A DNA stretch of 50,445 nucleotides from assembly GCA_903970445.1 (NCBI GenBank), contig CAJCIP010000027.1:1-50445 (forward strand), given 5' to 3'. This stretch comes from Verrucomicrobia bacterium Tous-C9LFEB (GTDB lineage Bacteria; Acidobacteriota; Terriglobia; Terriglobales; Acidobacteriaceae). Below, piece by piece: positions 4,516 to 48,894 of this stretch. Position 1 is the first letter of the stretch. Each line of letters begins with the position of its first letter. The notes below the pieces were generated by a model. The model had not been told where the DNA came from. It saw nothing but the letters and a program-made list of their open reading frames with translations, and did no database searches. The translations under genes were made by a program, and so were the position numbers.

Positions 4516-5952
4516 CTAACCTTCAAACGGCGCTAGCTGGCTCGTGGTCGGCGGCTTCGTGAACAGGCTGACGACGAACAAGCAGATCAGCGACGCCAGC
4601 AGCGCGGGCAGGATCGCGTCCCGTGCCGCAATGGCAGGGGGCATGTGTGGCGTCACAAAATCCCACCCGACGGTGACGGCGGTGCCGGCAGCAATGCTCG
4701 CCACCGCAGCCTTCGCGGTGGCTCGCTTCCAGAAGAAGGCAGCTAGAATCACGGGCGTCAGCGCCGCGGAATAGATCGTGTACGCGTAGAGCGACATCTT
4801 CAGCACGGATGTAATACGGAGCGCCTGAATCAGCGCCCAGCAACCCAGGGCCACAACCATAACGCGCGAGACGAGAAGAATCTTGCTGTTTGACGCTTCA
4901 GGACGCAGGTAGCGAACGAAGATGTCGTTGACGAGGTTGGTGGCGGGTGAGAAAAGATAGTTGTTCGCTGTCGACACGACTTTGGCGAAAATGGCGCCGA
5001 CAAGCAGCGCTCCGAGCAGCGTTACCAGCGGGGTGCTCGTAAAGGCGTGTATGGCTGAGTAAGCAAGTATCTCCCGCGGCCGGGCAGCCACTTCACCGGT
5101 ACGAAAGATCGCCGAGCCCACCACCGCGATGGCAACGATCACGGTCTCCAGAATCACTGTGCCGATGATCCAGCCAACCGTGGCCCGCGTCGCGTCCTTC
5201 TCGCTCTTCGCCGAGAAGAACTTCTGGTACATACTCTGGTTGCCGAGCATCAGCAGGCATGTCGGCAGAAACAGCTCAAGCGCCTGAACGAAGCTGAGGT
5301 CGCCAAGCGCCTGGAAGTGCGTGGCAGGTAGCGTAGCCTTCACATTCGACCATCCGCCAGCCGTGTGAATCAGCACGGGCAGCGCCGCGATCATCGTTCC
5401 CGTCGCGAGCATGCCGATCACCACATCCATGTACGCTACAGAACCCATACCCGCGATCGCGGTAAACACAATCACAAACGCGGCAAGAATGTACGCGCCG
5501 TGCACCGCGGTTACTTGCGGAAAAATGAGATGAAGAATATCGCCGCCGCCGATGAACTGATAGCTCGTAATCGCGGTGTAGGTAAACAGCACGGCAATCA
5601 CGCCCAGCACGCGCGCCGTCTGGTTGTAGCGCGACTCCAGCAGGTCCGGAATGGTGAACTGCGCAAACTTCCGCGCGCGCGGCGCAATGAAGTAAATGAG
5701 GGCGAGGCCCGCCCAGCCGCCGCCTCCCTGCCAGAGCGCGGCGAAGCCATGCTTGTACGCATTCTCCGCTCCGCCCAGCAGCGAACCCGACCCGATCCAA
5801 CTGGAGAGCAGCGTAAACACCAGCACAAATGCCGGCAGCGACCGCCCCGCCACCAGGTAGTCGGCCTTCGTCTTCACCTTGCCGAGCCGCGCCAGCGACA
5901 CGCCAAGCAACGTCACGACGATAGTGCCTAGAACAATCGCGTACAGGTTCAT
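4516..5952 (-). CDS. Sodium:solute symporter family protein (SSS)
   Basis: A 478-residue integral membrane transporter of the sodium:solute symporter (SLC5/PutP-like) family. Visible signatures include the N-terminal helix MNLYAIVLGTIVVTLLGVSL, the family loop DYLVAGRSLPAF after helix 1, the broken-helix region LLSSWIGSGSLLGGAENAYKHG, and YLFSPATNLVNDIF near helix 8. Hydrophobic segments run through the whole length. The length is normal for the family. The substrate cannot be told from sequence (amino acid, sugar, vitamin or carboxylate). Its 3' end abuts the acidic protein gene on the same strand, suggesting cotranscription. Confidence 0.9.
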   Translation of the reverse strand: MNLYAIVLGTIVVTLLGVSLARLGKVKTKADYLVAGRSLPAFVLVFTLLSSWIGSGSLLGGAENAYKHGFAALWQGGGGWAGLALIYFIAPRARKFAQFTIPDLLESRYNQTARVLGVIAVLFTYTAITSYQFIGGGDILHLIFPQVTAVHGAYILAAFVIVFTAIAGMGSVAYMDVVIGMLATGTMIAALPVLIHTAGGWSNVKATLPATHFQALGDLSFVQALELFLPTCLLMLGNQSMYQKFFSAKSEKDATRATVGWIIGTVILETVIVAIAVVGSAIFRTGEVAARPREILAYSAIHAFTSTPLVTLLGALLVGAIFAKVVSTANNYLFSPATNLVNDIFVRYLRPEASNSKILLVSRVMVVALGCWALIQALRITSVLKMSLYAYTIYSAALTPVILAAFFWKRATAKAAVASIAAGTAVTVGWDFVTPHMPPAIAARDAILPALLASLICLFVVSLFTKPPTTSQLAPFEG

Positions 5953-18214: not shown

Positions 18215-18257
18215 CGCTGCCACCCGAAAACCGTTCCGGGCACACAGAGACGCAGGC
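18215..18257 (-). repeat. 43-bp leader element, copy 1 (rplM leader)
   Basis: Identical over 43 bp to 19315-19357. It lies about 20 nt downstream of the minus-strand rplM promoter -10 box and so falls within the first 60 nt of the rplM transcript. The element contains CCCGGAACGG and TTTTCGGG, which can form a small stem. The flank toward the promoter is also similar between the two copies; the downstream flank is not. Confidence 0.8.
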
Positions 18258-19314: not shown

Positions 19315-19357
19315 CGCTGCCACCCGAAAACCGTTCCGGGCACACAGAGACGCAGGC
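19315..19357 (-). repeat. 43-bp leader element, copy 2
   Basis: Exact copy of the 43-bp rplM leader segment at 18215-18257, in the same orientation. The bases on the promoter side (GCGCGAG, then AT-rich -10) are also conserved with small changes. Downstream on the minus strand there is no gene before the antisense of the TonB-domain gene. Confidence 0.8.
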
Positions 19358-19548: not shown

Positions 19549-19619
19549 CGTCATCTCGACCGAAGGCGAAGCCGAAGTGGAGAGACCCCCGTATTTGCGG
19601 TCGCGAGTGCTGAAGCACG
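19549..19619. repeat. Dispersed GTCATCTCGACC repeat, copy 1
   Basis: Begins CGTCATCTCGACCGAAG, then a variable part, then GTGGAGAGACCCCC and GTATTTGC, with the tail GTCGCGAGTGCTGAAGCACG shared with the copy at 32659. It ends about 50 nt from the 3' end of the outer-membrane protein gene. Five other copies are in this window. Confidence 0.85.
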
Positions 19620-32658: not shown

Positions 32659-32738
32659 CTGTCATCTCGACCGGAGACGCTTGCGCCGCAGGGGAGAGAC
32701 CCCCGCATTTGCCGTCGCGAGTGCCGAAGGCACGAGCA
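32659..32738. repeat. Dispersed GTCATCTCGACC repeat, copy 2
   Basis: CTGTCATCTCGACCGGAG, a variable centre, GGGGAGAGACCCCCGCATTT, then the tail GTCGCGAGTGCCGAAGGCAC shared with the copy at 19549. It sits in the divergent spacer between cca and tsaD, so it may touch both promoters. Confidence 0.85.
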
Positions 32739-41657: not shown

Positions 41658-42359
41658 GTGCCAGTCTCTGTCGTCCTGATCGCCTTTTCTCTTGTCGCCA
41701 TGGTGCTTGCCATCTGCCTGCACGACTGTATGCAGGCCTGGGCGGCAAATCGCCTCGGGGACCCCACCGCGCGCATGCTCGGGCGCATCACGATGAACCC
41801 AGCGATGCACTTCGACGTGTTCGGCACCGCGATAGCGCCGCTGCTGTCGATCTTCATTTTCCACAACGCGCTCCCATACGGCTGGGGCAAGCCCGTGCCG
41901 ATGACCTACCGCAACTTCCGCAGCAAGAACGGTGAAATGCTGGCTGTCGCAGCCGGTCCGCTCGCACAGTTTGGGGCGGCGCTCGTTGCGCTGATCCTCC
42001 TCGTCATCATGAAACACACCGTTCCTCTGGCGCGCGAATCACTGGTCTTCGTGATGATGGTTGCCGCGCGCATGCCGCTTGCAGGCCTCGACGCGCTCCC
42101 TGGCGTGTTCCCGCTTCTGCTGTTCCTCTATCTCTGCATCATGGTGAATCTGCTGCTGTTCTGCTTCAACTTGCTGCCCATGCCGTTCCTCGATGGCGGC
42201 AAGGTTCTCGTCCACTTTCTGCCCTACAACGCGGCCAAAGCGTTTGAGCAGTACAGCATGTTCTTCGTGCTTGCCTTTTTCCTCATCGGCGGTTATCTCG
42301 TGAGCATTGTGTACAGTCCGCTCCTTACGATTTTTCAGGTACTGCTCGCCAGCTTGTAA
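41658..42359 (+). CDS. M50 (site-2 protease-like) membrane protein with degenerate zinc motif
   Basis: 233 residues from GTG 41658. The fold is that of rhomboid-like FjoA/SpoIVFB-type M50 peptidases: the segment AWAANRLGDPTARMLGRITMNPAMHFDVFG is the family's typical sequence after HExxH, and the third metal ligand motif is kept as NLLPMPFLDGGK. However, the HExxH itself reads H22-D-C-M-Q26, so both the catalytic Glu and the second zinc His are lost. It is probably catalytically dead or uses another function. Six or so hydrophobic helices. Followed by trpS after 58 nt. Confidence 0.82.
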   Translation: MPVSVVLIAFSLVAMVLAICLHDCMQAWAANRLGDPTARMLGRITMNPAMHFDVFGTAIAPLLSIFIFHNALPYGWGKPVPMTYRNFRSKNGEMLAVAAGPLAQFGAALVALILLVIMKHTVPLARESLVFVMMVAARMPLAGLDALPGVFPLLLFLYLCIMVNLLLFCFNLLPMPFLDGGKVLVHFLPYNAAKAFEQYSMFFVLAFFLIGGYLVSIVYSPLLTIFQVLLASL

Positions 42360-42417
42360 GCCGCTGCAGGCTGCTGCAACTCCAGGCGCCAGCCATGTAT
42401 CCTTAAGCCTCACGTTC

Positions 42418-43599
42418 ATGAGTTCACATCCCCTACGCACGACCCCGCGCCCTCGCGTTCTTAGCGGCATGCGGCCCACCGGCAAACTTCACCTCGGCAA
42501 CTACATGGGCGCCCTCAAAAACTGGGTGCACTTGCAGCAGGACTACGACTGCTACTTCTTCATCGCCGATATCCACGCGCTCACCACCGACTACGCCGAC
42601 CCCGGCCGCATCGTGGCCAACAACATCGAGATTGCGCTCGACTTTCTCTCCGCCGGGCTCGACCCCGGCCGCTGCGTCATCTTCAAGCAGAGCGACGTGC
42701 CCGCCCACTCCGAACTCAACACGCTCTTCAGCATGTTCACGCCCGTAGGCTGGCTTGAACGCGTCCCCACCTACAAAGATCAGCAGGCTGAGCTCGCTGA
42801 AAAAGACCTCAACACCTTCGGCTTCCTCGGCTATCCACTGCTGCAGGCCGCAGACATCCTGCTCTACACCCCGCACTTCGTTCCCGTCGGCGCCGACCAG
42901 GTCGCGCACGTAGAGCTCACCCGCGAAGTCGCACGCCGCTTCAACTCTCTTTACCCCGGCGCATTCTTCACCTCACCCGAAGCCGCGCCGTGGGAGATGA
43001 ACGCCATTCTCGAAAAAGCCCGCAAGCTCGCCGGCGAACCAAAGGATTCGACACGCTCCGACTTCAGCCCGCACCAGCTCTTTGAAGCCGCCTCGCAGAC
43101 GAAGAAAATATCGCCCTTCGGCCGCCGTGAAATCCTCCCCGAGCCGCAGGTGCTGCTCACGCCCTCGCCGAAGGTGCCCGGCCTCGACGGGCGCAAAATG
43201 TCGAAGAGCTATAACAACCACCTCATGCTCAGCGAGCCGGAAGCCGAGCTCCGCGCCAAGCTCAAGGTGATGGTCACCGACCCCGCGCGCGTGCGCCGCG
43301 ACGACCCCGGCAACCCCGACGTCTGCCCCGTCGGCAATCTCCACAAAGTTTTCAGCGATGAAGAAACCATCGCGAAGGTGTACGACGGCTGTACCCACGC
43401 CACCATCGGCTGCATCGAGTGCAAGACCTGGTGCTCCGACTCCATCGTTCGCGCTATAGCCCCAATTCAAGAGCACCGCCACGACCTCGAAAAGCGTCCC
43501 GAGGTCATCAAAGACGTGCTCGCCAACGGCGCAACCCGCGCCGCCAAACGCGCCAACGAAACACTGGCCGAAGTGAAGCACGCCATGGGTCTCAGCTAA
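42418..43599 (+). CDS. trpS: Tryptophanyl-tRNA synthetase
   Basis: 393 residues from ATG 42418 (MSSHPLRTTPRPRVLSGMRP). Class I synthetase charging tRNA-Trp: HIGH-like GKLHLGNYMGAL, YFFIADIHALT, GFLGYPLLQAADILLYTPHF, VPVGADQVAHVELTREVARR, and KMSKS as GRKMSKSYNN. An insertion before KMSKS (SDFSPHQLFEAASQTKK to LLTPSPK) makes it longer than the compact 330-residue form. Its TAA overlaps the scpA ATG (TAATG). Confidence 0.97.
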   Translation: MSSHPLRTTPRPRVLSGMRPTGKLHLGNYMGALKNWVHLQQDYDCYFFIADIHALTTDYADPGRIVANNIEIALDFLSAGLDPGRCVIFKQSDVPAHSELNTLFSMFTPVGWLERVPTYKDQQAELAEKDLNTFGFLGYPLLQAADILLYTPHFVPVGADQVAHVELTREVARRFNSLYPGAFFTSPEAAPWEMNAILEKARKLAGEPKDSTRSDFSPHQLFEAASQTKKISPFGRREILPEPQVLLTPSPKVPGLDGRKMSKSYNNHLMLSEPEAELRAKLKVMVTDPARVRRDDPGNPDVCPVGNLHKVFSDEETIAKVYDGCTHATIGCIECKTWCSDSIVRAIAPIQEHRHDLEKRPEVIKDVLANGATRAAKRANETLAEVKHAMGLS

Positions 43600-44804
43600 T
43601 GGCAGAAGAACTGGAGCAAGCAGCGACTCCGGACGAGACTGCGATACCCTCAGCCCCGCCGTCCCAACCGGAAGCCCAACCATCCGCCCTGTCATCTCGA
43701 CCGGAGGCCCTGAGCGAACGCAGTGAGTCGAAGGGGCGGAGTGGAGAGACCCCCGCATTCGCGGATGCTTCAGAGCCGCAGCCGTCCGCATCAGAGCCGC
43801 AGCCGTCCGCAGAGGCCCTCTCTACTCATTTGTCATCTCGACCGGAGCGCGAAGTGCGGAGTGGAGAGACCCCTGTATTTGCAGACGCTGACGAGCCACA
43901 GCCGCAATCGGAGAGCAAGACAAGCGAGCCGTTCACCCTCGAGTCGCCCAAACCGGCACTCGCCCCCGAGCCAAAGAAACAGCCCGCGAAAAAAGACCCC
44001 GAAGAAGCCTCGCAATCCCCGTTCTCACTCACAGTCGGTGAGGTCTATGAAGGCCCGTTCGATCTGCTGCTCGACCTCGTCCGCAAGCAAAATATCGATA
44101 TCTACGACATTCCCATCTCGCGCATCACCGCGCAATTCCTCGAGTACACGCACCACCTCAAGCAGGTCGACGTCGACGCCGCCGGCGAGTTCGTCTACGT
44201 CGCCTCGCTGCTCATCCACATCAAGAGCAAAACACTGCTGCCGCGCGATCCCACTGAGCTAGGTGACAACGGCGCTGCGGAAGATCCGCGCCGCGAGCTG
44301 GTCGAACGCCTGCTCGAACACGAGCGCTTCAAAGCCGCCGCACAAATGCTGTTACAAAAACAGCAAATCGAAGAAGCCACATGGTCGCAGCCGGGTATGA
44401 AAGCCTTTCTGCGGGACCAAGGGCAGGACTCGCTCGAAGGCGAACGCGAAATCGCCGCCGACACCGTCGATCTTGTCCGCGTCTTTCAGGATATTCTGCA
44501 ACGCCTGCGCGAGCGCCCGGTCCACAGCATCGACGAAGACTCCGTCACCGTCGCGCAAATGATCGACTTCGTAAAGCGCCGCCTGCTGATGGAAGATCGT
44601 CCCATCAGCCTCCGCCGCATGCTCAGCAACACCAAGTCAGAACGCGCCCTCATCTGCACATTCCTCGCAATGTTGGAGTTGGTCCGCCTCCAGGCGATTC
44701 TGCTGCGTCAGCCAGATGAACTAGGCGACATCCTCGTAAAGAAGACCGACAACTTCGATCAGGTGATGGCAGACCAGGCTGCCGTTCGGGACGACTGGGA
44801 CTAG
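43599..44804 (+). CDS. scpA: Segregation and condensation protein A with repeat-derived N-terminal extension
   Basis: ScpA, the kleisin of the bacterial SMC-ScpAB condensin. 401 residues from ATG 43599. The family core starts near residue 145 (VGEVYEGPFDLLLDLVRKQN, IDIYDIPISRITAQFLEYTH, AGEFVYVASLLIHIKSKTLL) and ends with a winged-helix that would bind the SMC head (RRMLSNTKSERALICTFLAM). The first 140 or so residues are low-complexity and made largely of repeats: two in-frame copies of the GTCATCTCGACC repeat (giving SSRPEALSERSESKGRSGET and SSRPEREVRSGETPVFADAD) and a doubled SEPQPSA. The extension is probably disordered and recently acquired. Confidence 0.93.
   Translation: MAEELEQAATPDETAIPSAPPSQPEAQPSALSSRPEALSERSESKGRSGETPAFADASEPQPSASEPQPSAEALSTHLSSRPEREVRSGETPVFADADEPQPQSESKTSEPFTLESPKPALAPEPKKQPAKKDPEEASQSPFSLTVGEVYEGPFDLLLDLVRKQNIDIYDIPISRITAQFLEYTHHLKQVDVDAAGEFVYVASLLIHIKSKTLLPRDPTELGDNGAAEDPRRELVERLLEHERFKAAAQMLLQKQQIEEATWSQPGMKAFLRDQGQDSLEGEREIAADTVDLVRVFQDILQRLRERPVHSIDEDSVTVAQMIDFVKRRLLMEDRPISLRRMLSNTKSERALICTFLAMLELVRLQAILLRQPDELGDILVKKTDNFDQVMADQAAVRDDWD
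43690..43768. repeat. Dispersed GTCATCTCGACC repeat, copy 3, inside scpA
   Basis: Starts TGTCATCTCGACCGGAGG, centre CCTGAGCGAACGCAGTGAG, ends GTGGAGAGACCCCCGC. Nearly identical over about 74 bp to the intergenic copy at 46297. Read in frame 0 of scpA without a stop. Confidence 0.88.
43770..43811. repeat. Two tandem 21-bp units in scpA
   Basis: Units 43770-43790 and 43791-43811 (TCAGAGCCGCAGCCGTCCGC plus one A) are identical and each encodes SEPQPSA. They lie between the two in-frame dispersed repeats. Confidence 0.85.
43831..43887. repeat. Dispersed GTCATCTCGACC repeat, copy 4, inside scpA (short form)
   Basis: TGTCATCTCGACCGGAG, a short centre CGCGAAGTGCG, then GAGTGGAGAGACCCC and GTATTTGC. 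It is the short form without the CCTGAGCGAA centre; in frame with scpA. Confidence 0.85.
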
Positions 44805-46296: not shown

Positions 46297-46370
46297 CTGT
46301 CATCTCGACCGGAGGTCCTGAGCGAACGAAGTGAGTCGAAGGGGCGCAGTGGAGAGACCCTGTATTTGCC
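46297..46370. repeat. Dispersed GTCATCTCGACC repeat, copy 5
   Basis: CTGTCATCTCGACCGGAGG, centre TCCTGAGCGAACGAAGTGAG, end GTGGAGAGACCCTGTATTTG. The long form, almost the same as the copy inside scpA at 43690. It lies between the 3' ends of the NUP-like and macrodomain genes. Confidence 0.88.
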
Positions 46371-47077: not shown

Positions 47078-48706
47078 ATGAGTACGGCAACGGCAATCCG
47101 CACGTCAGAAACCCCATACACAAAGTCCATCCTGGACGAGAAACTTGAGAAATCCTCCGTCGGCAAATGGGGCGGCATTGTTTTCGGCGTCATGCTGGTC
47201 GCAGGTCTGATCTACATCGCCACACATCTTGGCAAAGATCTTTCCGTTGTCCACTCGGCTTCTGTCTTTCCGTTTGTCCTGCTGGGCCTCGCACTCTTCA
47301 TCGCGCTCGGCTTTGAGTTTGTGAATGGGTTTCATGACACGGCTAATGCCGTTGCCACCTGCATCTACACGCACTCGCTGGAACCGCACATCGCGGTCGT
47401 CTATTCCGGCATCATGAACTTCGTCGGTGTGCTTCTAAGCTCTGGCCTCGTAGCGTACTCCATCGTCAGCCTGCTGCCCGTGGAGTTGATCCTCAAGGTA
47501 AGCTCCGGTTCCGGCTTCGCCATGGTCTTCGCGCTCCTGGTTGCTGCCATTCTTTGGAATCTTGCCACCTGGTGGAAGGGCTTGCCCGCTTCGAGCTCAC
47601 ACACCATGATCGGCTCCGTCATTGGCGTAGGCATTGCCAACCAGTTGATGCATGGCCGCTCGGGTGTATCCGGCATCGACGTAGAACAAGTCAAGAAGGT
47701 CTTCACGGCCCTGCTCGTCTCTCCATTGGTCGGCTTTGGCGTCGCGATCCTCGTGTTCTTCCTTTTCAAGCTGGTGGCGCACGATCCCCGCTTGTACAAA
47801 GCTCCTGAAGGCACAGAGCCACCACCTTTCTATATCCGCGCTCTGCTCATCCTTACGTGCGGCGGCGTCAGCTATGCGCACGGTTCAAACGACGGCCAAA
47901 AGGGCATGGGCCTGATCATGCTCATCCTCGTCGGCACGGTTCCAACCGCCTATGCGCTGAACCACACCGTGGACCGGGGCTCTATTGTCACGTTCGCTGC
48001 TGTCTCCACGCAGGTTGCCGGCGCGCTGCACAACTACGAAGACCCTAATGTCACCCTTGGCGAGTCCGGCCCTGAGCTGGAGAAGTTTGTCGCTGATAAG
48101 AAATACGAGCCTCAGGTCGTCACGGCGCTCGAAGAAATGGTGAACGACATCCGCAACGAAGCCGTGAGCTATGGTTCGCTCGGCAACGTGCCTGCGGAGA
48201 TGCAGGCCAACGTTCGCAACCAGATGTACCTCACCTCGGCCACCTTTGCCCAGCTCGCGAAGTCGAAAGACGCACCAAAAATTAGCGACGCAGACAAGAA
48301 AGTCATCGCCAACTACAAGGGCTTCTTGGATAAATCCACTAAGTTCATCCCGACTTGGGTAAAAGTAGCCGTTGCCCTCGCGCTTGGCCTTGGAACGATG
48401 GTCGGCTGGAAACGCATCGTGGTCACGGTTGGTGAAAAGATCGGCAAGACACATCTCACCTACGCGCAGGGTGCCTCAGCTGAACTTACTGCCATGTGCA
48501 CGATCCTGGCCGCCGACAATTTTGGGCTTCCCGTCAGTACCACGCACGTCCTCAGTTCGGGCGTAGCCGGCACCATGATGGCCAACGGCAGCGGCCTGCA
48601 GATGTCCACCATCCGCAACATCGCGCTTGCCTGGGTCTTCACGCTTCCTGCTGCCGCGGTGTTATCCGGGCTGCTCTTCCTGCTCTTCAACAAGATCGCC
48701 AGCTAG
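47078..48706 (+). CDS. pit: Low-affinity inorganic phosphate transporter (Pit family)
   Basis: 542 residues. PiT signature motifs in both halves: [20 protein letters not shown] near the first and [20 protein letters not shown] near the second, along with [20 protein letters not shown] and [14 protein letters not shown]. About ten hydrophobic helices, with a cytosolic insert of roughly 100 residues (about 320-420, [20 protein letters not shown] onward). Couples phosphate (as a metal complex) to protons. Followed by a strong terminator. Confidence 0.95.
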
Positions 48707-48839: not shown

Positions 48840-48894
48840 CGTCATCTCGACCGAAGCGGCGCAGCCGCGCAGTGGAGAGACCCCTGTATTTGCG
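48840..48894. repeat. Dispersed GTCATCTCGACC repeat, copy 6 (short form)
   Basis: CGTCATCTCGACCGAAG, centre CGGCGCAGCCGCGCA, then GTGGAGAGACCCC and GTATTTGC. It is in the spacer between the phosphate transporter and scpB. The rest of the 285-nt spacer holds the terminator and no gene. Confidence 0.85.

What the first reader, a model, noticed from the sequence alone, without database searches (positions are those of the whole stretch)
43690..43887. Dispersed intergenic repeat translated in frame within ScpA
The N-terminal extension of ScpA contains two copies of the same element found between genes at 19549, 32659, 46297 and 48840. The first is the long form and matches the intergenic copy at 46297 over about 74 bp. 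Both are open in scpA's frame and give SSRPE...GRSGET-like peptides. A mobile or copying element has therefore built part of a condensin subunit.
Basis: partly seen in the sequence, partly recalled or inferred. Interest (0 to 1): 0.72.

Follow-up and report, generated by a model that had tools for sequence, protein, structure and literature searches.

The report
Hairpin repeats invading genes, with nuclease
A short hairpin DNA repeat that spreads through a soil bacterium's genome has been absorbed, in reading frame, into the gene for the chromosome-folding protein ScpA and at least nine other genes, and repeats of this kind sit as matched pairs around small nuclease genes that may be what moves them.

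Summary
Window 43691-43763 and 43832-43883 are two copies of a dispersed hairpin repeat, read in frame inside scpA (ATG 43599, overlapping the trpS stop). scpA is one case of many: the genome holds 102 model matches at E<=1, and at least 15 lie in frame in 10 recognisable genes (scpA, ffh, asnS, metG, rimO, gluQRS, mutS2, protoporphyrinogen oxidase, nrdJ, an ArnT-like transferase). Solved homologues of Ffh, AsnRS, MetRS and RimO lack the extra peptides. The element resembles the published CGTC/TGTC-tagged REP superfamily, whose members are already known inside genes and which was reported in 2013 to lack a dedicated transposase. New here: small GIY-YIG nuclease genes (UPF0213/Slx1-like fold) are flanked by inverted copies of such hairpins, at 19 of 40 scored loci in the genus and 50 of 80 loci across many phyla, against 1 of 400 and 0 of 143 control positions. 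In the genus, nuclease type tracks repeat type (Mantel r 0.65-0.71, p 5e-5). At one site a close relative has the hairpin pair without the gene. I infer that the GIY-YIG nuclease is the missing mobiliser, or a homing partner, of these REPs. Movement, cleavage and translation are not shown.

The parts
43599..44804 (+). scpA; Pfam SMC_ScpA covers residues 160-381, so residues 1-159 are linker/extension
42307..43599 (+). trpS, whose stop overlaps the scpA start (TAATG)
   Evidence: named from recalled similarity, no family search run on it
43691..43763 (+). hairpin element, long form, in frame in scpA (sense phase 2: SSRPEALSERSESKGRSGETPAFA)
43832..43883 (+). hairpin element, short form, in frame in scpA (SSRPEREVRSGETPVFA)
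46299..46370 (+). copy outside scpA, long form, 92% identical to the first scpA copy over 73 nt
48841..48894 (+). copy behind the 47078-48706 ORF
32661..32713 (+). dispersed copy
19550..19599 (+). dispersed copy

Best explanation
The element is a REP-like DNA hairpin of the CGTC/TGTC-tagged kind: a conserved lower stem, a freely changing upper stem, and a GTCAT head. It spreads through the genome, and copies that land in frame in tolerant linkers or loops of proteins are kept, so parts of the genes for ScpA, Ffh, AsnRS, MetRS, RimO and others are made of it. Its partner enzyme is most likely a small GIY-YIG nuclease of the UPF0213 fold. Genes for such nucleases are found between two outward-headed inverted copies of the matching hairpin, and gene-less inverted pairs of uniform length in one genome (G004) look like its non-autonomous derivatives. 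I infer that the nuclease cuts or nicks at hairpins and that repair copies the hairpin, or the whole unit, to new places. Shown by sequence: the family, the structure covariation, the in-frame insertions, the flanking, the match of nuclease type with repeat type, and one site with and without the gene. Inferred: cleavage, copying, direction of change, and translation.
For: Family and structure: 102 R1 matches in the own genome; 25 cells with changes on both sides of a pair against 10.5 +- 2.1 in shuffles, 0 of 500 reach it. In-frame insertion: 15 copies in 10 named genes, 11 of 15 in one frame against 3.2 expected if all stop-free frames were equal; PDB homologues lack the stretch in Ffh, AsnRS, MetRS and RimO, and so do the Ffh orthologues compared. 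Partner: inverted flanking repeats at 19 of 40 scored GIY-YIG loci of the genus against 1 of 400 control positions and 0 of 7 uvrC, and at 50 of 80 loci from many phyla against 0 of 143 shifted controls; of those 50, heads outward only 32, inward only 4, both 6, no strict motif in both arms 8. The own genome has a GIY-YIG gene at C37:5991-6206 between this very element at 5868(+) and 6230(-); it is the only outward-headed pair among the 102 copies with a gap of 100-700 bp. Nuclease distance tracks repeat distance in the genus and weakly across phyla. Co-occurrence: 14 of 17 genomes with the element have a small GIY-YIG gene of this type, 1 of 11 without (read; test). Same site with the gene in G004 and without in G003.
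Against: No movement, cleavage or translation is shown. 21 of 40 genus loci and 30 of 80 wide loci lack the inverted flanks at my thresholds, which I set after seeing the scores. G002, G013 and G020 have the element but no small GIY-YIG gene of this type was found (G020 is 54% complete), and G024 has such a gene but no R1 match at E<=1e-5. The genomes are related, so the co-occurrence p value is too small. The wide set was found with 12 proteins that are all from flanked loci, and at least 4 of its 80 loci are also genus loci. The scpA copies themselves do not fold better than shuffles (z 0.48 and -0.28). Most close pairs of copies in the own genome are direct repeats (18 of 21).
Confidence: 0.65

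Rival explanations
1. The GIY-YIG gene is a homing parasite of the repeats: it uses hairpin pairs as safe landing sites and does not move the hairpins themselves, which spread by another route (another transposase in trans, or gene conversion).
For: Most copies in the own genome are single or in direct arrays, not in inverted pairs (18 of 21 close pairs are direct). At one site G003 has the pair without the gene and G004 has it with the gene, which is what homing into a pair would give. Three genomes have the element without a detected small GIY-YIG gene of this type.
Against: It does not by itself explain why element-free genomes nearly always lack the gene or why nuclease type tracks repeat type, though homing specificity could explain the second.
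Confidence: 0.25
2. The repeats are mobilised by the Y1 (RAYT) transposases of the genome, as GTAG-type REPs are thought to be, and the GIY-YIG link is incidental.
For: The genome has 8 Y1_Tnp matches, and one of them has an element about 340 bp away.
Against: R1 matches in only 1 of the 8 Y1_Tnp loci. That RAYT is surrounded by a different palindrome, GGCTGAAGCC-like (by eye). Di Nocera 2013 (passages read) also reports that no tyrosine transposase gene was flanked by CGTC repeats.
Confidence: 0.07
3. The scpA copies are untranslated leader or the N-terminal stretch is wrong annotation, so no protein was built by a repeat.
For: In-frame TTG 43830 and GTG 43854 exist downstream of the first copy; in 5 orthologues the start-like motif lies well behind the trpS stop; no proteomics was available.
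Against: The ATG at the trpS stop is the usual arrangement (12 of 17 frames), and in Ffh, AsnRS, MetRS and RimO the copies lie between conserved stretches, where no start choice can avoid them (the stretch behind the MetRS insert is short and scores weakly).
Confidence: 0.05
4. The flanking inverted repeats are ordinary terminators or chance REPs around a gene that sits in repeat-rich intergenic DNA.
For: REPs are known to lie near gene ends (Di Nocera 2013, section 15 read).
Against: Control positions give 1 of 400 and 0 of 143, although the first pool (151 loci) holds 66 loci fetched because they contain the element. Orientation is consistent and the repeat type follows the nuclease type. 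Other short genes were not used as a control.
Confidence: 0.05

Closest known systems
CGTC-tagged REPs (Di Nocera et al. 2013, PMC3733652; abstract, sections 6, 13, 15 and passages read)
   Same: Short hairpin with a CGTC or TGTC tag followed by AT, many dispersed copies, inverted dimers, copies inside genes.
   Different: Lower stem interrupted, upper stem very variable in length, no CCA tail; found here in an acidobacterial genus. The paper reports no associated transposase gene; here repeats of this kind flank GIY-YIG genes.
Rickettsia palindromic elements (RPE-1, RPE-4, RPE-6) inside protein genes (described through Di Nocera 2013; original papers recalled, not read)
   Same: Palindromic repeats read in frame inside housekeeping genes; that paper says R. 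[quoted passage not shown]
   Different: Other phylum and another repeat family; here the same linkers (scpA, rimO) hold repeats in several species.
RAYT/REP (REPtron) systems
   Same: An enzyme gene between inverted REPs, enzyme type matched to repeat type, gene-less copies in the genome.
   Different: The enzyme is a GIY-YIG nuclease, not a Y1 HUH transposase.
UPF0213 proteins and Slx1 (GIY-YIG structure-selective nuclease)
   Same: AlphaFold model of the nuclease (mean pLDDT 92.4) matches UPF0213 BH0048 (1zg2) and Slx1 (6sei, 4xlg) among its four best solved structures.
   Different: Matches are modest (best E 3.1e-3, TM 0.57; none at E<=0.001); no sequence match in the PDB; no activity is known to me for the small proteins here.

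Membership tests
CGTC-tagged REP superfamily (Di Nocera 2013) | CGTC or TGTC tag at one end followed by AT at the stem base | tested here: met
   (T)GTCATCT... heads in the copies. In the predicted fold GTC itself pairs, so the tag is less clearly unpaired than in the published families.
CGTC-tagged REP superfamily (Di Nocera 2013) | Stem of 8 or 9 bp with a loop of 4 or 5 (section 6) | tested here: not met
   Interrupted lower stem of 9 pairs plus an upper stem of very variable length, often with a 3-base loop.
CGTC-tagged REP superfamily (Di Nocera 2013) | Short unpaired tail, mostly CCA | tested here: not met
   This element ends ...GAGACCCC[CT]G[CT]ATTTGC. Tails like ATCCA occur at several GIY-YIG loci of other phyla, e.g. 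L334, L351, L354. I therefore call the element CGTC-REP-like, not a member of one of the four published families.
CGTC-tagged REP superfamily (Di Nocera 2013) | Many dispersed copies, predominantly as inverted dimers | tested here: inconclusive
   102 matches in the own genome, but only 3 of 21 close pairs there are inverted; six uniform inverted pairs were listed in G004.
Protein-coding palindromic repeats (RPE-like) | Copies in frame inside conserved genes, absent from homologues | tested here: met
Protein-coding palindromic repeats (RPE-like) | Translated into the protein | not testable with these tools
   no proteomics
RAYT/REP (REPtron) | REPs flank a Y1 HUH transposase gene | tested here: not met
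   1 of 8 Y1_Tnp loci has one R1 match, with another palindrome nearer
UPF0213-type GIY-YIG nuclease | GIY-YIG domain with motif residues kept | tested here: met
   PF01541 E 2e-13; Y13, G15, R23, H27, E49 invariant in 34 rows. Their catalytic role is recalled from I-TevI, not tested.

The most novel reading that the evidence does not exclude
GIY-YIG nucleases of the UPF0213 type are the dedicated mobilisers of the CGTC/TGTC hairpin repeats of bacteria: a separate class of mobile DNA in which two outward-headed hairpins carry a one-gene nuclease, throw off gene-less pairs and solo hairpins, and seed in-frame peptides into essential proteins in many phyla.
Probability: 0.5. Interest if true: 0.92.

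Novelty: new variant of a known kind. Interest (0 to 1): 0.8.

Why it matters
REP-like hairpins are widespread repeats of bacteria, and the CGTC-tagged ones were reported in 2013 to have no known transposase (PMC3733652). A nuclease partner that matches repeat by repeat would close that gap and can be tested directly. It would also explain how such repeats keep entering genes: this genome carries them in frame in the genes for Ffh, two aminoacyl-tRNA synthetases, RimO and ScpA, which makes it a counterpart of what was described in Rickettsia. The loops that tolerate them give a natural record of where essential proteins accept extra sequence.

Tried and rejected
RAYT as cognate enzyme: rejected because 7 of 8 Y1_Tnp loci have no R1 match and the eighth has its own palindrome. 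Extra stability of the scpA copies as hairpins: not supported (z 0.48 and -0.28); of six copies folded, one is clearly below its shuffles (z -2.98). Structure rests on family-level covariation, on an alignment and a structure drawn from the same sequences. A downstream scpA start near residue 140: no ATG, GTG or TTG there. In-frame candidates without a recognisable gene (C29:6524-6787, three copies; no NCBIfam or Pfam hit) were not counted. Of the mechanical open frames I took 20 copies further and counted only those with a named family; the rest were not examined, so 15 copies is a lower bound. Names: metG, nrdJ and the ArnT-like protein score below NCBIfam's curated cut-offs; the first two are cut by a contig or stretch end. 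The two rimO matches are the weakest of the 15 (42.9 and 30.5 bits). A second intact copy of the gene was looked for only for Ffh and RimO.

Thresholds and samples: the inverted-repeat score cut-offs (20 in the genus, 16 in the wide set) were chosen after seeing the scores; control maxima were 26.5 (a RAYT/REP locus) and 14. In the genus test 41 loci were given and 40 scored (L241 is too near a contig end; the Fisher test counted it as a miss). They were picked from the PF01541 matches: the UvrC-like ones were left out, and two others (G004:C24:30315, G008:C158:23356) were not examined. L073, L239 and L264 are GIY-YIG proteins of other types and were kept as misses. The co-occurrence table was read by eye; the G019 gene of another type and the G027 match cut by a contig end were counted as absent. 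R1 searches score at most 150 candidates a genome, so counts for the richest genomes are lower bounds. The Mantel test over 40 wide loci has small r (0.20). In the genus Mantel test the arm of L255 was cut at an inner GTCA and that of L260 had no GTCA head.

Literature: in the listings of ten searches I saw no paper linking GIY-YIG genes with REPs or palindromic repeats of bacteria. Searches matched 87 to 414 papers each and listed only the best 10 to 25. Only open-licence PMC papers are held, so this is not proof of novelty.

Full report
1. What is in the window. Model R1, built from 35 copies, finds six copies in the window: 19550-19599, 32661-32713, 43691-43763, 43832-43883, 46299-46370 and 48841-48894, all on the + strand. 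The first scpA copy and the one at 46299 share the rare long form at 92% over 73 nt. scpA starts at ATG 43599, overlapping the trpS stop; Pfam SMC_ScpA covers residues 160-381, so both copies lie in the N-terminal linker.

2. The element. Its plan is GTCATCTCGACC-GNAG-[variable hairpin]-NNAGTGGAGAGACCCC-YGYATTTGC, 48-75 nt in the copies read. The lower stem (GTC.TCTC.AC with GT.GAGA.GAC) is nearly fixed. The upper stem changes length and sequence and keeps pairing: 25 cells with changes on both sides against 10.5 +- 2.1 in shuffles. In 22 of 38 copies my simple stem search found a G-N-A triloop; such loops are recalled to be very stable in DNA, which would fit a single-stranded DNA intermediate, but this is a hint only. 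Folding energies of single copies are mostly not unusual (six folded).

3. Copies in the genome. The own genome (3.68 Mb, 133 contigs, 94% complete) has 102 R1 matches at E<=1 and 85 at E<=1e-5. In the genus, 17 of 28 genomes have matches at E<=1e-5, from 5 to 145 each; 11 have none.

4. In-frame copies in other genes. Of the 102 matches, at least 15 lie in frame in ten recognisable genes: scpA (2), ffh (1), asnS (1), metG (1), rimO (2), gluQRS (1), mutS2 (1, antisense strand of the element), protoporphyrinogen oxidase (1), nrdJ (1, near the N-terminus) and an ArnT-like transferase (4, at steps of 96-99 bp). Against solved homologues the extra stretches stand out: Ffh query 164-204 against 163-171 in 2xxa_A, AsnRS 241-275 against 271-273 in 5zg8_A, MetRS 199-285 against 198-197 in 2csx_A (the contig cuts this gene and the stretch behind the insert scores weakly), RimO 149-314 against 111-131 and 384-450 against 201-203 in 4jc0_A. 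A search of the genus with Ffh found it in 24 of 28 genomes. In the 19 genomes where the match was listed in two main pieces it broke at this loop; the two full-length matches, G012 and G024, have other sequence there; G016 and G025 gave only one piece. The own genome has only one match for Ffh (E<=1e-60) and one for RimO (E<=1e-40), so no second intact copy of these two was found; the other genes were not checked for this. 11 of the 15 copies use the same frame (SSRPE...RSGETPVFA), against 3.2 expected if any stop-free frame served equally; four of the 11 are tandem copies in one gene. I read this as selection for the hydrophilic frame (inference).

5. The same linkers are hit repeatedly. The scpA linker carries related repeats in G013 (this element by R1, plus a GTCACCCTGAGC repeat), G009 (two GTCATCCTGAGC copies), G011 and G008 (diverged copies), the last four by eye. 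R1 found no copy in the scpA linkers of the other orthologues searched (26 loci). RimO loops carry element-like peptides in G000, G009 and G012, and a different repeat in G000 and G013 (by eye, nine genomes aligned).

6. A candidate mover. The eight Y1_Tnp genes of the genome gave one nearby element, beside a RAYT with another palindrome. The five GIY-YIG matches included one small gene, C37:5991-6206, between copies of this element in opposite orientation at 5868 and 6230. Of 21 close pairs among the 102 copies this is the only outward-headed pair with a gap of 100-700 bp. I then tested the link without the model. Best inverted repeat within 350 bp on either side of the domain: 19 of 40 scored small GIY-YIG loci of the genus reach 20, against 1 of 400 random positions in other loci (a RAYT/REP locus) and 0 of 7 uvrC genes. 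R1 itself hits 4 times in 47 ffh and rimO loci and 27 times in 53 sources: 51 GIY-YIG loci (some of them uvrC) and two pair loci, which gave 4 of the 27. In 80 loci found by similarity to the nuclease in a collection of 84,980 species, 50 reach 16, against 0 of 143 shifted windows in the same loci. By record title they include Acidobacteriota, Bacteroidota, Alpha-, Beta- and Gammaproteobacteria, Verrucomicrobiota, Chloroflexota, Spirochaetota and several Patescibacteria (phylum names partly recalled). Of those 50, 32 have GTCA heads at both outer ends only, 4 inward only, 6 both, and 8 lack the strict motif in both arms. In two of seven of those genomes tested, the CTTGTTT-loop hairpin seen at alphaproteobacterial loci is dispersed (15 and 9 copies; reversed control 0); a third has 1 and the other four none.

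7. Nuclease type and repeat type go together. For the 19 flanked loci of the genus, protein distance and repeat distance correlate with r 0.71, p 5e-5; after dropping near-identical proteins, 16 loci, r 0.65, p 5e-5. Within single genomes, distinct nucleases have distinct repeats (G000, G003, G004, G010, G026). Over 40 loci from many phyla r is 0.20, p 1e-4. 14 of 17 genomes with the element have a small gene of this type, against 1 of 11 without (Fisher p 2.7e-4, uncorrected for kinship).

8. Anatomy of the unit. In G004 a 488-bp unit (hairpin, GIY-YIG gene, inverted hairpin; L258:670-1157) sits where its close relative G003 has a 143-bp gene-less inverted pair, with the two end hairpins in swapped order (by eye) and flanks of 97% and 93% identity. 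G004 also has six outward-headed pairs of uniform length, 171-174 bp; spacers look alike in the three that I read. These look like non-autonomous derivatives. At the one such pair compared, G003 has other sequence. The direction of change (gain or loss of the gene) is unknown.

9. The nuclease. AlphaFold gives a confident 95-residue model (pLDDT 92.4). The best solved matches are UPF0213 protein BH0048 and Slx1, a nuclease for branched DNA, with modest scores (best E 3.1e-3). Y, G, R, H and E of the motif region are invariant in 34 sequences. I infer a structure-selective cut at the hairpin or cruciform, repaired so that the hairpin or the unit is copied.

10. What is known. Di Nocera et al. 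2013 (PMC3733652; abstract, sections 6, 13 and 15 and passages read) divide REPs into GTAG and CGTC superfamilies, say that R. conorii CGTC repeats correspond to RPE-6 and RPE-4, list REPs inside genes including tRNA synthetases, and state that CGTC repeats are not associated with transposase genes. Passages of PMC12306157 and PMC6006769 add nothing on GIY-YIG. So in-frame hairpins are a known phenomenon, and I saw no report of them for this genus in the listings; nor did I see the GIY-YIG link in the listings of ten searches. The element meets the tag feature but not the stem size or the CCA tail, so I call it CGTC-REP-like.

11. Verdict. Observation confirmed; interpretation right in kind, too narrow in scope. 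The in-frame insertions are near certain as DNA facts. The GIY-YIG partnership is strongly supported by association (about 0.9 that it is real); that the nuclease moves the repeats is the best reading but unproven (about 0.65).

Noticed in passing
L092 (G000:C58:51299-51820 and flanks): A RAYT-like Y1_Tnp gene followed by several GGCGGCTGAAGCCGCC-type palindromes, probably its own REP.
   Followed up: partly
L103:973-3030 (rimO of G000) and L202 (G013): A second repeat type read in frame in RimO loops (ALKGTGFSPS...KGALAPEG), shared by two genomes.
   Followed up: partly
window 19245, 22457, 22714; also C124 in L016: Dispersed palindrome CCCACATCTCGCTTCTGAGATGTGGG within a longer GGGTGCCCCACATCTC repeat.
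   Followed up: no
window 18215-18257 and 19315-19357: Exact 43-nt direct repeat 1.1 kb apart.
   Followed up: no
G000:C61:23-335, C75:49026-49271, C58:9463-9814: Element copies in regular direct tandem arrays with steps of about 80-99 bp.
   Followed up: partly
L237 (G010) and L263 (G012): GIY-YIG genes with an internal stop, one of them (L237) still between inverted repeats: perhaps decaying units.
   Followed up: no
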